Shown piece by piece: positions 48,235 through 62,141 of a stretch of 64,000 bases of DNA. Below the pieces are notes generated by a model. That model saw only the letters and a program-made list of their open reading frames with translations. It searched no databases and had not been told where the DNA came from. The stretch is from Acuticoccus sediminis (GTDB lineage: Bacteria > Pseudomonadota > Alphaproteobacteria > Rhizobiales > Amorphaceae). The number at the start of each line of letters is the position of its first letter. Position 1 is the stretch's first letter. The stretch is taken from assembly GCF_003258595.1 (NCBI RefSeq), contig NZ_QHHQ01000002.1:868001-932000 (forward strand), given 5' to 3'. The position numbers were made by a program, and so were the translations under genes.

Positions 48235-48253
48235 AATAAGTATATACATAATG
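48235..48253. promoter_or_regulatory. HutC-like operator in hutF/hutI promoter
   Basis: AATAAGTATATACATAATG; on minus it contains TTATGTATATAC. It fits the TGTA-N2-TACA pattern described for HutC with one mismatch and lies 22 bases before the hutI start. It is an AT-rich island in GC-rich surroundings. Confidence 0.7.
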
Positions 48254-48274
48254 ACGCAGCGAGAGGCAACCTGA

Positions 48275-49513
48275 ATGGCGAACGGCGATCGGATCTGGCG
48301 CAACGCACGCCTTGCGACACTGGACCCCGGGCGGGACGGTCTGGGGGAGATCGGGGACGGCGCTCTCGCCGTGCGGGACGGGACGATCCTGTTCGCAGGA
48401 CCCCGGGCCGACCTTCCGGGCGAGCTTGCCGGCGGCGCCGACGTCGTCGACTGCGGGGGCCGCTGGATCACGCCCGGCCTCGTCGACTGCCACACCCACC
48501 TCGTCCACGCCGGCAACCGGGCGAAGGAGTTCCAGATGCGCCTCGCCGGTGCGTCGTACGAGGAGATTGCACGCGCGGGCGGGGGCATCGTCTCGACGGT
48601 GGCGAGCGTCCGGGCCGCCAGCGAGGACGACCTCGTGCGCGAGAGCCTGCCGCGCCTCGAGGCGCTGATGGGCGAGGGCGTGACGACGGTGGAGGTGAAG
48701 TCCGGCTACGGCCTCACCGTCGAGGACGAGGTGAAGATGCTGCGGGCGGCGCGCCGCCTCGGCGAACGTGGCGTCACGGTGATGACGTCCTATCTCGGCG
48801 CCCACGCCGTCCCGGCCGACTATCGCGGCCGCAACGACGCGTTCATCGACGAGGTGGTGATCCTGGGCCTCGAGGCCGCGCACGCGGATGGCATCGTCGA
48901 CGCGGTGGACGGGTTCTGCGAGGGGATCGCGTTCTCGCCCGAAGAGATCGCGCGGGTGTTCGACGCCGCCGCCCGCCTCGGCCTTCCCGTCAGGCTGCAT
49001 GCGGACCAGCTGTCCGACCTCGCCGGAGGGGCGCTCGCGGCGCGGTACGGCGCGCTGTCGGCCGACCACCTCGAATATCTCAGCGACGACGGGGCCGCCG
49101 CCATGGCAAGGGCCGGCACCGTCGCCGTGCTGCTGCCGGGCGCCTATTACTTCCTGCGCGAGACGCGCAAGCCGCCCGTTGCGGCCCTGCGCGAACACGG
49201 CACGCGGATCGCCATCGCGACGGACAACAATCCCGGCACCTCGCCGCTGACGTCGCCTCTCCTCACCATGAACATGGCTGCGACGCTGTTCGGCCTCACG
49301 GTCGAGGAGTGCATCGCCGGCATCACCCGCGAGGCGGCGCGTGCGCTCGGCCGGCTCGACCGGATCGGCACGCTGGAGCCCGGCAAGGCCGCGGACTTCT
49401 GCCTTTGGGACATCGCCGAGCCCGCCGAGCTCGTCTACCGCATCGGCTTCAACCCGCTGCACGCCCGCGTCTACCGGGGGCATGCCGATGCCGCAGGGAA
49501 AGGGCGCCCATGA
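48275..49513 (+). CDS. hutI: Imidazolonepropionase HutI
   Basis: 412 residues with a GAGAGG ribosome binding site at 48261-48266. It is an amidohydrolase-fold enzyme. [19 protein letters not shown] (68-86) supplies the metal histidines and substrate residues, followed by [15 protein letters not shown]. Later [27 protein letters not shown] and the family end are intact. It opens the imidazolone ring to give formiminoglutamate. It is the first gene of hutI-hutH-hutG-hutU, overlapping hutH by four bases. The HutC-like site lies directly upstream. Confidence 0.96.
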
Positions 49514-51048
49514 CACTCATCCTCCGGCCCGGACGGGTCACCCTCGCCGAGCTCGCCACCATCTACTGGGACAAGGTGCCCGCGCGCCTCGACCGCCAGT
49601 TCGACGAGGGGATCGAGAGAGCGGCCGCGCGGATCGCCGCCATCGCCGCCGGCAACGCGCCCGTCTACGGGGTGAACACCGGCTTCGGCAAGCTCGCCTC
49701 GATCACCATCGACGCCGCCGACACCGCGACCCTGCAGCGCAACCTCATCCTCTCCCACTGCTGCGGCGTCGGCGCGCCGCTCGGCGAGGAGATCGTGCGC
49801 CTCGTCATGGCGCTGAAGCTCATCTCGCTGGGCCGCGGCGCGTCGGGTGTGCGGCTGGCGCTCGTGCGGCTGATCGAGGACATGCTGGAGCGCGGCGTCA
49901 CGCCGATGATCCCCGAGAAGGGCTCGGTCGGCGCGTCGGGCGACCTCGCCCCGCTCGCCCACCTCGCAGCGGTGATGATGGGCGAGGGCGAGGCCTTCCT
50001 CGAGGGGGAGCGTCTCCCCGGCCGCACCGCGCTGGAGCGCGCGGGCCTCGCGCCGGTCGTCCTCGCCGCCAAGGAGGGGCTGGCCCTCATCAACGGGACA
50101 CAGACGTCCACGGCGCTCGCGCTCGCGGGCCTGTTCCGTGCGCACCGGGCGGCGCAGTCGGCGCTCGTCACCGGCGCGATGTCGACCGACGCCGCGATGG
50201 GCTCGTCCGCCCCGTTCGTGGCCGACATCCACCTCCTGCGCGGCCATCAGGGGCAGATCGACGCTGCCGCGGCGCTGCGCGGGCTGCTCGCGGGGTCCGA
50301 GATCCGCCAGAGCCATATCGAGGGGGACGAGCGGGTCCAGGATCCCTACTGCATCCGCTGCCAGCCGCAGGTGGACGGGGCGTGCCTCGACATCCTGCGC
50401 AGCACCGCCCGCACGCTCGAGATCGAGGCGAACGCCGTCACCGACAACCCGCTCGTCCTCTCCGACGACAGCGTGGTCTCGGGCGGGAACTTCCATGCCG
50501 AGCCGGTCGCCTTCGCGGCCGACCAGATCGCCCTCGCGGTCTGCGAGATCGGCGCCATCTCGCAGCGGCGCATCGCCCTTCTCGTCGACCCGGCGCTCTC
50601 GTACGGCCTGCCCGCGTTCCTCGCGCGGAACGCGGGGCTCAACTCCGGGCTCATGATCGCCGAGGTCACGTCCGCGGCGTTGATGAGCGAGAACAAGCAG
50701 ATGGCGCACCCCGCCTCGGTCGATTCCACACCGACCTCCGCCAACCAGGAGGACCACGTATCGATGGCCTGCCATGGCGCCCGTCGCCTCCTCGCGATGA
50801 CGGAGAACCTCTTCGCGATCATCGGCATCGAGGCGCTGACGGCGGCGCGCGGGGTCGAGTTCCGCGCACCGCTCGAGACCAGCCCGGCGCTGCAGGGCGC
50901 CATCGCGGCGCTGCGCGGCGTGGTCCCGACGCTGGACGACGACCGCTACATGGCGCCCGACCTTGCCGCCGCCGCCGCGATGGTCGCCGACGGCCGCCTG
51001 GCAGGCAGCGTACCGGCGGAATGCCGCGTAGGACTGGAGAGCAGATGA
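49510..51048 (+). CDS. hutH: Histidine ammonia-lyase HutH
   Basis: 512 residues, ATG overlapping the hutI stop. The MIO-forming Ala-Ser-Gly is at 142-144 in [14 protein letters not shown]; Tyr53 in YGVNTGFG is the catalytic tyrosine. It deaminates L-histidine to urocanate in the cytoplasm. [14 protein letters not shown] and the C-terminal helices are intact, and the length matches the family (about 510). The next gene, hutG, starts inside its stop (ATGA at 51045-51048). Confidence 0.97.
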
Positions 51049-51863
51049 GCGTGTTCGACGTTGCCGAGGGGACCTCGCCGGTCATCCTCGCCTTCCCCCA
51101 CACCGGCACCGACGTCCCGGACGAGATCGCCGCGCGGCTGAACGACAACGGCCGCCTTCTCGCCGACACCGACTGGCACGTCGACCGCCTCTATGCCGGG
51201 CTCCTTGCGGACGCCACGACGGTGCGCGCCACGTTCCACCGCTACGTGATCGACGCCAACCGCGATCCGAGCGGGGCGAGCCTCTATCCCGGCCAGAACA
51301 CGACCGGCCTCATCCCGGTGACGGACTTCGACGGGGCACCGATCTGGAAGGCCGGCGAGGAGCCGGGGGACAGCGACATCGCGCTGCGCCGCGCGGCGTA
51401 TCACGAGCCCTACCACGCCGCGCTCGCGGCACAGATCGAGCGGGTGAAGGCTCGTCACGGTGTCGTGGTGCTCTACGATTGCCACTCGATCCGCTCCCTC
51501 GTTCCGTACCTTTTCGAGGGGACGTTGCCGGACCTCAACATCGGCACGGCGCACGGAACGACGTGCGACCCGCAGGTGGAGGCCGCCGTCGTGGCGGTGG
51601 CCGAGGCGGCGACGGACTTCACGCACGTCCTCAACGGCCGCTTCGTCGGCGGCTGGACGACGCGCCACTACGGCCGGCCGGACGAGAACGTCCACGCGGT
51701 GCAGATGGAGCTGAGCCAGATCAGCCACCTCGCCACCGAAGCGCCGCCGTTCGAGTACGACGCCGCCAAGGCGGAGCGTCTGCGAATGACCCTCAAGTCC
51801 ATTCTGGAGCGGCTGGAACAGGTCGCCTTCCGCCTGCAATCGAGAGAGAACGCCGATGGCTGA
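51045..51863 (+). CDS. hutG: N-formylglutamate amidohydrolase HutG
   Basis: 272 residues, overlapping hutH by four bases and hutU by eight. The family features are FPHTGTDVP near the N-terminus, [33 protein letters not shown] (metal-binding Asp-x-His), and [14 protein letters not shown]. It hydrolyses N-formylglutamate to formate and glutamate, completing the HutF-HutG branch that avoids the folate-dependent or one-step arginase-type HutG. HutF and this gene together explain the final steps. Confidence 0.95.
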
Positions 51864-61990: not shown

Positions 61991-62004
61991 GGCGATTTCC
62001 GGCA

Positions 62005-62020
62005 AGATATGTATATATCT
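62005..62020. promoter_or_regulatory. HutC-like operator before the aminotransferase gene
   Basis: AGATATGTATATATCT has perfect outer arms (AGATAT/ATATCT) and contains TGTATATA, close to TGTA-N2-TACA. It lies 15 bases before the ATG at 61990, a repressor position. Confidence 0.6.
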
Positions 62021-62120
62021 ATTCCGCAATTGCGCCGGGGGTCAATCGAGGGTGTCGCGGACCGTCCCGCAGGCTCGATGGCATACAAATGATTGCCGTT
62101 GCGCCACCGACAGAACGCTG

Positions 62121-62141
62121 CTCATGTGTGTACATAATGAG
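62121..62141. promoter_or_regulatory. HutC-like autoregulatory site
   Basis: An inverted repeat with outer arms CTCAT/ATGAG around GTGTGTACATA. The inner TGTG-TG-TACA differs by one base from TGTA-N2-TACA. It lies 69 bases before the hutC start and 130 bases from the divergent aminotransferase start. Confidence 0.55.

What the first reader, a model, noticed from the sequence alone, without database searches (positions are those of the whole stretch)
48235..62141. Five HutC-like operators define a regulon larger than the classical hut genes
TGTA-N2-TACA-like, AT-rich palindromes occur at the hutF/hutI promoter (48235-48253), the CoA-transferase/HMG-CoA-lyase promoter (59773-59791, exact pattern, and weakly 59868-59885), the HisC-like promoter (62005-62020) and the hutC promoter (62121-62141). 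The surrounding DNA is very GC-rich, so such sequences are unlikely by chance. This predicts that HutC represses both hut genes and an accessory set: CoA-transferase, CitE-like lyase, ABC transporter, hydroxyacid dehydrogenase, HMG-CoA-lyase-like and aminotransferase genes.
Basis: partly seen in the sequence, partly recalled or inferred. Interest (0 to 1): 0.75.

Follow-up and report, generated by a model that had tools for sequence, protein, structure and literature searches.

The report
Histidine repressor with extra target genes
In this bacterium the switch that normally turns on histidine breakdown also appears to control an amino-acid importer, an aminotransferase and several carbon-cleaving enzymes, so its set of controlled genes looks larger than the textbook one; this is predicted from DNA comparison and not yet tested.

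Summary
Sixty simulated windows gave none at the level of the first four and 0.03 per window at the fifth. The adjacent GntR protein passes the HutC equivalog cut-off. In a same-genus genome the gene order (minus hutG and rraA) and four operators are kept.

(1) The ABC transporter is of the kind usually found beside hutC. (2) The HisC-like gene recurs near hutC or under HutC-type sites on plasmids of other alphaproteobacteria. (4) In a third species the lyase gene sits between hutU and hutC. (5) The fifth site overlaps the lyase coding start and is uncertain. (6) With a loose pattern, genome hits are at control level, so the regulon looks local. (7) This HutC groups with transporter-linked HutCs, not with a congener's hut-operon HutC. 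Binding and expression were not tested.

The parts
48235..48252 (.). HutC-type operator between hutF (-) and hutI (+)
   Evidence: 34.8 bits, rank 1 in window; a site of at most 3 mismatches lies upstream of hutI at 20 of 21 other places held, 17 of the 20 outside the genus
46822..48174 (-). hutF, formimidoylglutamate deiminase
   Evidence: TIGR02022 575 bits, cut-off 413
48275..49513 (+). hutI, imidazolonepropionase
   Evidence: TIGR01224 426 bits, cut-off 298
49510..51048 (+). hutH, histidine ammonia-lyase
   Evidence: PF00221 600 bits; 88% to the gene at the same place in G004
51045..51863 (+). hutG, N-formylglutamate deformylase
   Evidence: PF05013 243 bits; 67% to a gene annotated hutG in L210
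51856..53529 (+). hutU, urocanate hydratase
   Evidence: TIGR01228 973 bits, cut-off 375
53551..54573 (-). D-2-hydroxyacid dehydrogenase (ddh), last gene of the caiB operon
   Evidence: PF02826/PF00389; no equivalog cut-off reached
54585..57560 (-). polar amino-acid-type ABC transporter: ATPase 54585-55367, permeases 55364-56035 and 56037-56690, binding protein 56730-57560
   Evidence: PF00497 for the binding protein; relatives beside or near hutC in L042, L181/L182, L186, L193, L205, L206, L212, L247, L248, L250
57598..58497 (-). CitE/HpcH-type CoA-ester lyase
   Evidence: PF03328; citE and RipC equivalogs below cut-off
58494..59747 (-). class III CoA-transferase (CaiB type), first gene of a tight seven-gene operon
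   Evidence: PF02515; best NCBIfam succinate--glutarate CoA-transferase 236 bits, below cut-off 750
59773..59790 (.). HutC-type operator between caiB (-) and hmgL (+)
   Evidence: 33.1 bits, rank 2; kept in G004 (34.1 bits) in diverged flanks
59865..59882 (.). possible auxiliary HutC site overlapping the start of hmgL
   Evidence: 11.8 bits, rank 5; kept in G004, not in G003; holds the codon ATA, 2 of 291 Ile codons in 17 window genes, this one included
59853..60818 (+). HMG-CoA-lyase-like gene (hmgL); alternative start 59883
   Evidence: NF004283 297 bits, cut-off 246; in G003 the gene lies between hutU and hutC
60869..61990 (-). HisC-like aminotransferase
   Evidence: TIGR01141 289 bits, cut-off 277; recurs near hutC or HutC-type sites
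62006..62023 (.). HutC-type operator at the hisC start
   Evidence: 21.6 bits, rank 3; kept in G004, 28.2 bits
62121..62138 (.). HutC-type operator upstream of hutC (autoregulation)
   Evidence: 16.0 bits, rank 4; aligned site in G004 18.4 bits
62211..62942 (+). hutC, GntR/UTRA repressor
   Evidence: TIGR02018 282 bits, cut-off 220; PF00392 and PF07702
63065..63745 (+). RraA-like aldolase/decarboxylase behind hutC, possibly in the hutC transcript (122-base gap)
   Evidence: PF03737; caiB-citE-ddh-rraA occur together in L067 and L208

Best explanation
This is a HutC-controlled histidine-utilisation island. HutC is predicted to bind palindromes of the type TATGTNTANACATA at four promoter regions and to repress hutF, the hutI-H-G-U operon, the caiB-citE-ABC-ddh operon, hmgL, hisC and its own gene (with rraA possibly behind it). 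When histidine is available, urocanate, the known HutC ligand in other bacteria, should release it. The importer brings in histidine-like substrates. The HisC-like enzyme most likely interconverts imidazolylpyruvate and histidine, so that histidine derivatives other than L-histidine can enter the hut path. CaiB, CitE, HMG-CoA lyase and RraA form a CoA-dependent carboxylate-cleaving set taken into the regulon in this genus; its substrate is not known. Shown: sites, conservation, gene families, operon layout. Inferred: binding, release by urocanate, substrates.
For: Matrix from other genera ranks the sites 1-5, robust to column permutation; three further hutI loci not used in training score 32-33 bits. 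HutC equivalog. Its putative recognition-helix stretch CSRMTVNKAL equals that of the A. tumefaciens LN-1 and G111 HutCs, whose hutF/hutI sites include TATGTATAGACATA and TATGTATATACATA. Sites and gene order kept in G004 with HutC 86%. hmgL in the hut gene row of G003, behind the same operator. On the A. tumefaciens LN-1 plasmid a 31.8-bit site, not used in training, lies between the ABC transporter and a 55% hisC next to a full hut operon. A TTGCT(C/T)-N16-TATACA stretch overlapping the hutI operator is shared by the three genus members aligned (window, G004, G003; my reading), fitting occlusion of RNA polymerase.
Against: No binding or expression data. The consensus promoter scanner found no promoter in any of the three regions. 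The hutC site is not unusual by score genome-wide and the hisC site only just. Other HutCs with different helix stretches (L212, G031, G002, G035) face similar hutI sites, so helix identity is weak support. A second hutI copy in G004 (L257, 61%) has no site in the 137 upstream bases held. CaiB relatives elsewhere have no hut gene nearby: 0 of 80 loci of 3-21 kb. Of 297 genomes of the order only 6 have a close hisC and 18 a close caiB, the window's own included. Ddh and CitE reach no function-level cut-off. The training sites were first located by similarity to the window's own core sequence, so their choice is not fully independent.
Confidence: 0.75

Rival explanations
1. HutC controls only hut genes, its own gene and the importer in a meaningful way; caiB, citE, ddh and hmgL are passengers that share promoters or sit in between and have no role in histidine metabolism.
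For: The importer is the recurrent HutC neighbour. caiB-citE occurs elsewhere with tripartite tricarboxylate or other ABC transporters and, in two records, IclR-type regulators nearby, without hut genes; 0 of 80 fetched relatives lie near hut.
Against: caiB is the first gene behind the operator and is kept so in G004; hmgL sits between hutU and hutC in G003 without caiB.
Confidence: 0.35
2. The sites belong to another GntR/UTRA regulator and not to this HutC.
For: The genome has 20 matches to HutC at E<=0.001, this one included; related GntR proteins can share core motifs (recalled).
Against: The best other match in the genome has E 3e-14 at 27% identity; the sites surround this hutC; the same site type lies upstream of hutI at 20 of 21 other places held.
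Confidence: 0.06
3. The palindromes are AT-rich promoter sequence without a repressor.
For: They lie close to gene starts in a 70% GC genome; promoters are AT-rich (general knowledge).
Against: Column-permuted matrices with the same composition never reach the first four scores; conservation against diverged flanks.
Confidence: 0.04

Closest known systems
HutC regulons of Proteobacteria (Leyn et al. 2016, PMC5343134; passages and section 12 seen)
   Same: HutC repressor, hut core genes, ABC histidine transporters (HutXYZ, HisXYZ) as lineage-specific members
   Different: That section names no CoA-transferase, CitE, HMG-CoA lyase, RraA or catabolic HisC-like member; it does predict HutC control of the histidine biosynthesis operon in two gammaproteobacteria. 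Its figure, supplements and RegPrecise tables were not seen, so such members could be listed there.
Pseudomonas HutC operator TGTA-N2-TACA (PMC12977541, passages seen)
   Same: Same core palindrome; HutC reported there to bind genes beyond hut
   Different: The extra Pseudomonas targets are low-affinity sites over the genome (172 candidates); here the strong sites found are in one cluster and sit at catabolic genes
HutC-ABC clusters on Rhizobium plasmids and in G190 (L205, L206, L250, L181/L182)
   Same: Closest HutC relatives found (60-66%), same ABC transporter type, a HisC-like gene in L250
   Different: No hut genes and no caiB, citE or hmgL matches in the fetched stretches; L205 and L206 carry a flavin monooxygenase and another aminotransferase
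hut/ABC/hisC region of Agrobacterium tumefaciens LN-1 plasmid (L210)
   Same: hut operon, ABC transporter and 55% hisC with a HutC-type site between the latter two
   Different: HutC only 45%; no caiB, citE, hmgL or rraA matches; a D-amino-acid-dehydrogenase-like and a RidA-family gene instead
caiB-citE-ddh-rraA cassette of Aureimonas AU20 pAU20b (L208)
   Same: Same four families together (55, 45, 38, 55%)
   Different: Other transporter, IclR-type regulators nearby, no hut genes, no site above 9 bits

Membership tests
HutC (histidine utilisation repressor) | Score above TIGR02018 equivalog cut-off, GntR plus UTRA domains | tested here: met
   282 vs 220 bits; PF00392, PF07702
HutC (histidine utilisation repressor) | Gene linked to hut genes | tested here: met
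   hutF/I/H/G/U within 16 kb
HutC (histidine utilisation repressor) | Release from DNA by urocanate | not testable with these tools
   needs protein
HutC regulon member | HutC operator in the promoter, conserved between species | tested here: met
   hutF/hutI, caiB/hmgL, hisC and hutC sites kept in G004; in G003 only the hutF/hutI site was found in the locus
HutC regulon member | Site at 59865 inside hmgL is an operator | tested here: inconclusive
   11.8 bits, kept in G004, absent in G003
HutC regulon member | Expression changes in a hutC mutant | not testable with these tools
   no data
HisXYZ/HutXYZ histidine ABC transporter | HutC-linked polar amino-acid ABC system | tested here: met
HisXYZ/HutXYZ histidine ABC transporter | Histidine transport, or same orthologue group as in Leyn 2016 | not tested
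   no reference sequence compared; nearest solved binding proteins are glutamine/amino-acid types and ancestral reconstructions
Histidinol-phosphate aminotransferase | TIGR01141 equivalog cut-off | tested here: met
   289 vs 276.55 bits; the PRK05166 model is not reached, 418 vs 540. Whether the genome has a separate biosynthetic hisC was not tested.
Itaconate/citramalate C-C lyase (RipC/Ccl) or citrate lyase CitE | Equivalog cut-off | tested here: not met
   130.5 vs 375 and 158.9 vs 443.4 bits
Succinate--glutarate CoA-transferase (SUGCT type) | Equivalog cut-off | tested here: not met
   236 vs 750 bits
HMG-CoA lyase family | NF004283 subfamily cut-off | tested here: met
   297 vs 246 bits; substrate not tested

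The most novel reading that the evidence does not exclude
HutC here coordinates a broader imidazole-amino-acid economy: importer, HisC-like transaminase and hydroxyacid dehydrogenase let D-histidine or imidazolyl-lactate enter as imidazolylpyruvate and be turned into L-histidine for hut, while CaiB, CitE, HMG-CoA lyase and RraA open a CoA-dependent branch not yet described for histidine-related compounds. The regulator itself is a transporter-type HutC that took over the hut operon in this genus.
Probability: 0.2. Interest if true: 0.62.

Novelty: new variant of a known kind. Interest (0 to 1): 0.45.

Why it matters
It gives a concrete, testable list of HutC targets outside the textbook pathway, suggests a catabolic role for a gene type that is annotated as a histidine-biosynthesis aminotransferase, and shows how a CoA-dependent cassette can be captured by an existing repressor. 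If true, growth tests on D-histidine, imidazolyl-lactate and short hydroxy-dicarboxylates could assign substrates to several orphan enzyme families.

Tried and rejected
Of the 11 places that lie in the window's genome outside the cluster, 6 were read with flanks (L055 and L057 overlap, beside a ParA/VirC1-like gene; L197 between a CoA-transferase family III gene and an enoyl-CoA hydratase gene; L200 near a luciferase-like monooxygenase; L201 before another GntR/UTRA gene; L204 near a MaoC-like gene) and 5 were not. None is a hut gene; L197 (16.3 bits) could be a further weak target. Four places of G003 and G004 were also read; one in G003 (L052) scores 28.0 bits, with the called genes lying before it and none called after it in the stretch held.

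The 59796-59813 TGTCTATACA sequence was considered as a further operator and dropped: -1.7 bits, not kept as a palindrome in G004. The idea that G003 and G004 lack hutG altogether was dropped: both have a 52-53% copy elsewhere. The idea that hercynine is the substrate of the related HutC/Rieske clusters got no support from the one paper search made and remains a guess. Sigma-70 promoter scans were negative.

Literature, open library only: the listings show, by title and start of abstract, no paper on HutC with HMG-CoA lyase or with a catabolic HisC; one search lists one Pseudomonas proteomics paper holding both of its terms once, not opened. Papers seen: PMC5343134 (passages and section 12), PMC12772324 and PMC12977541 (passages). 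The imidazolyl-lactate route in Pseudomonas (Comamonas) testosteroni is recalled and comes from no call.

The hisC survey: 149 plasmid records matched, 25 were listed, 16 of those were fetched, 15 were scanned (L262 was not; in L250, L252, L253 and L254, which have no annotation, the hisC start was set by the match and is approximate). The tree used 52 HutC-like rows. In one search the extracted G245 row was out of frame and is ignored. My first count of hutI-upstream sites, 17 of 17, missed loci; one search replaced it by 20 of 21.
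Full report
What is there. The stretch 46.8-63.7 kb holds hutF (-), hutI-hutH-hutG-hutU (+), a seven-gene minus-strand operon caiB-citE-(binding protein, two permeases, ATPase)-ddh with gaps of at most 40 bases, hmgL (+), hisC (-), hutC (+) and rraA (+). The GntR/UTRA protein passes the HutC equivalog cut-off, 282 against 220 bits.

The sites. The five reported sequences are present. ATGTATATAC occurs only twice in the 7.76-Mb genome, both here. A matrix from 16 hutI-upstream sites in 14 loci of other genera ranks the five reported sites as the five best of the window; controls were 60 simulated windows and 1000 column-permuted matrices. 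The training sites were first located by similarity to the window's core motif, so the test is independent in genome but not fully in choice. A recount over all loci held finds hutI at 21 places other than the window's. A site of at most 3 mismatches to TATGTATATACATA lies within 350 bases upstream at 20 of them: G002, G003 and G004 of the same genus, and 17 others (L038, L040, L041, L042, L171, L172, L174, L183, L184, L185, L188, L191, L192, L194, L195, L196, L210). The one without is a second hutI of G004 (L257), for which 137 upstream bases were held. L171, L172 and L174 were not used in training and score 32.3-33.3 bits. Published work gives TGTA-N2-TACA as the Pseudomonas HutC core (PMC12977541, passages).

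Limits of the sites. The plain pattern TGTATNNATACA with up to 3 mismatches is not enriched in the window. A loose genome-wide pattern gives 15 places against 13 for the reversed control, 4 of the 15 in this cluster. Six of the 11 others were scored over 18 bases: highest 19.4 and 16.3, against 21.6 for hisC and 16.0 for hutC. The fifth site overlaps the first codons of hmgL; it is kept in G004 and contains the rare codon ATA (2 of 291 Ile codons in 17 window genes, this one included) but is absent in G003. I call it a possible auxiliary site.

Conservation. G004 (same genus, HutC 86%) has the same gene order from hutF to hutC, without hutG in the operon and without an rraA match behind hutC; four operators align with the window's while the flanks differ. 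In G003 (HutC 75%) the hutF/hutI operator is kept and hmgL lies between hutU and hutC; no caiB, citE, hisC, ddh or binding-protein match was found in that 19.9-kb locus, and the genome has no close caiB or hisC at the limits. The genome search marks one TGA in the G003 hmgL match; the frame is open for 304 codons and I read that TGA as its end. So hmgL is behind a HutC operator in two different arrangements. In the window, G004 and G003 a TTGCT(C/T)-N16-TATACA stretch overlaps the hutI operator (read by eye; G002 not aligned; the promoter scanner found nothing).

The accessory genes look to be of three origins. (a) The ABC transporter: relatives, mostly 41-60%, sit beside or near hutC in many of the loci mapped, often with HutC-type sites in front of the binding-protein gene (L042, L186, L193, L212, L247, L248; beside hisC in L210). 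Histidine ABC transporters are known HutC regulon members (PMC5343134 section 12). (b) The HisC-like gene: of 19 loci from outside the genus scanned, 6 have a hutC-like gene in the fetched stretch (L210, L212, L247, L248, L250, L254; the L254 protein is only 34% identical, falls outside the main HutC groups of the tree and lies beside a hutH). Of the 15 plasmid loci, 3 have a site of at least 20 bits within 300 bases upstream of hisC (L210, L214, L249) and 12 do not; no site of 15 bits or more lies close upstream of hisC in the 4 genome loci. Background is 4 such hits in 1,246,407 bases, 2 of them in the 1,010,585 bases of loci with at least 55% GC. In L210 the genes around hisC include a D-amino-acid-dehydrogenase-like FAD enzyme (151 bits, below the cut-off of 383), a RidA-family protein and the ABC system; in L212 and L248 a FAD-binding oxidoreductase follows hisC, GlcD-like in L212 though below cut-off. 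This suggests that the enzyme feeds imidazolylpyruvate, made from D-histidine or a hydroxy acid, into L-histidine; this is inference. (c) caiB-citE: in the annotated relatives read, this pair comes with tricarboxylate or other transporters, and none of 80 fetched caiB loci has a hut match nearby. caiB-citE-ddh-rraA occur together in Aureimonas AU20 and in the Paenochrobactrum MAG L067. I therefore read rraA behind hutC as part of a cassette that was split and placed under HutC control; ddh relatives there are only 32-38% identical, so its link to the cassette is less sure, and it could equally serve hisC.

The regulator. In a tree of 52 HutC-like proteins the window, G004 and G003 group with HutCs of Rhizobium plasmids and of G190 (100/99 support) that sit next to the ABC transporter and have no hut genes in the fetched stretches. 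The hut-operon HutC of the same-genus G002 is in a different, supported group. A takeover of the hut operon by a transporter-type HutC is the simplest reading. The putative recognition-helix stretch equals that of two canonical HutCs (A. tumefaciens LN-1 and G111) and differs by one or more residues from others compared.

How widespread. Among 297 genomes of the order, the window's own included, 71 have a HutC at E<=1e-45, 14 a close hmgL (1e-75), 6 a close hisC (1e-85) and 18 a close caiB (1e-100). Among the loci mapped, the full combination was seen in the window and, without rraA and operon hutG, in G004. The organism and its order are unnamed in the tool; Hyphomicrobiales is my guess from the nearest HutC relatives.

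Verdict. It is an extended variant of a known regulon. The biochemical role of the CoA genes is open.

Noticed in passing
L037:15518-16663 and L186:10241-11413: GbcA-like Rieske oxygenase genes directly behind hutC (168 and 146 bits to the glycine betaine monooxygenase model, cut-off 670); Rieske-type genes also stand in 7 of the 11 annotated hisC loci, in L211 and L213 with formaldehyde-handling genes. Possibly demethylation of histidine betaines.
   Followed up: partly
51045-51863 against L036, L037, L190: hutG is in the window's hut operon but missing from the hut operons of three same-genus genomes, which keep hutF; G003 and G004 have a 52-53% copy elsewhere, G002 only 28-33% matches. In G004 the distant copy (L257) lies beside a second hutI.
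   Followed up: partly
L249 (Neorhizobium NCHU2750 plasmid) 2626, 7931, 14873, 16017: Four HutC-type sites of 21-25 bits around a hisC-like gene and flavin monooxygenases, with no HutC match in the fetched 17 kb.
   Followed up: no
L197 about 1499-1516 (G000:C1:1700624): A 16.3-bit HutC-like site between divergent CoA-transferase family III and enoyl-CoA hydratase genes elsewhere in the window's genome.
   Followed up: partly
43425-46784: Hydantoinase B/oxoprolinase and a FAD-dependent oxidoreductase gene run towards hutF; no HutC-type site scored well there and no match to the oxidoreductase lies beside hutF in G004 or G003.
   Followed up: partly
L189 (G002) 3614-9957: A CaiB relative (48%), probable TRAP-type transporter genes (my reading of the protein starts), a FAS1-type dehydratase-domain gene (PF13452) and an hmgL relative (57%) form a separate cluster without hut matches.
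   Followed up: partly
L215 (Agrobacterium vitis plasmid) 6930-13098: ABC transporter (49-65%), HMG-CoA-lyase gene (37%), CoA-transferase (29%) and hisC (49%) in one row without hut matches or a site above 9 bits: an independent cluster of similar make-up.
   Followed up: partly
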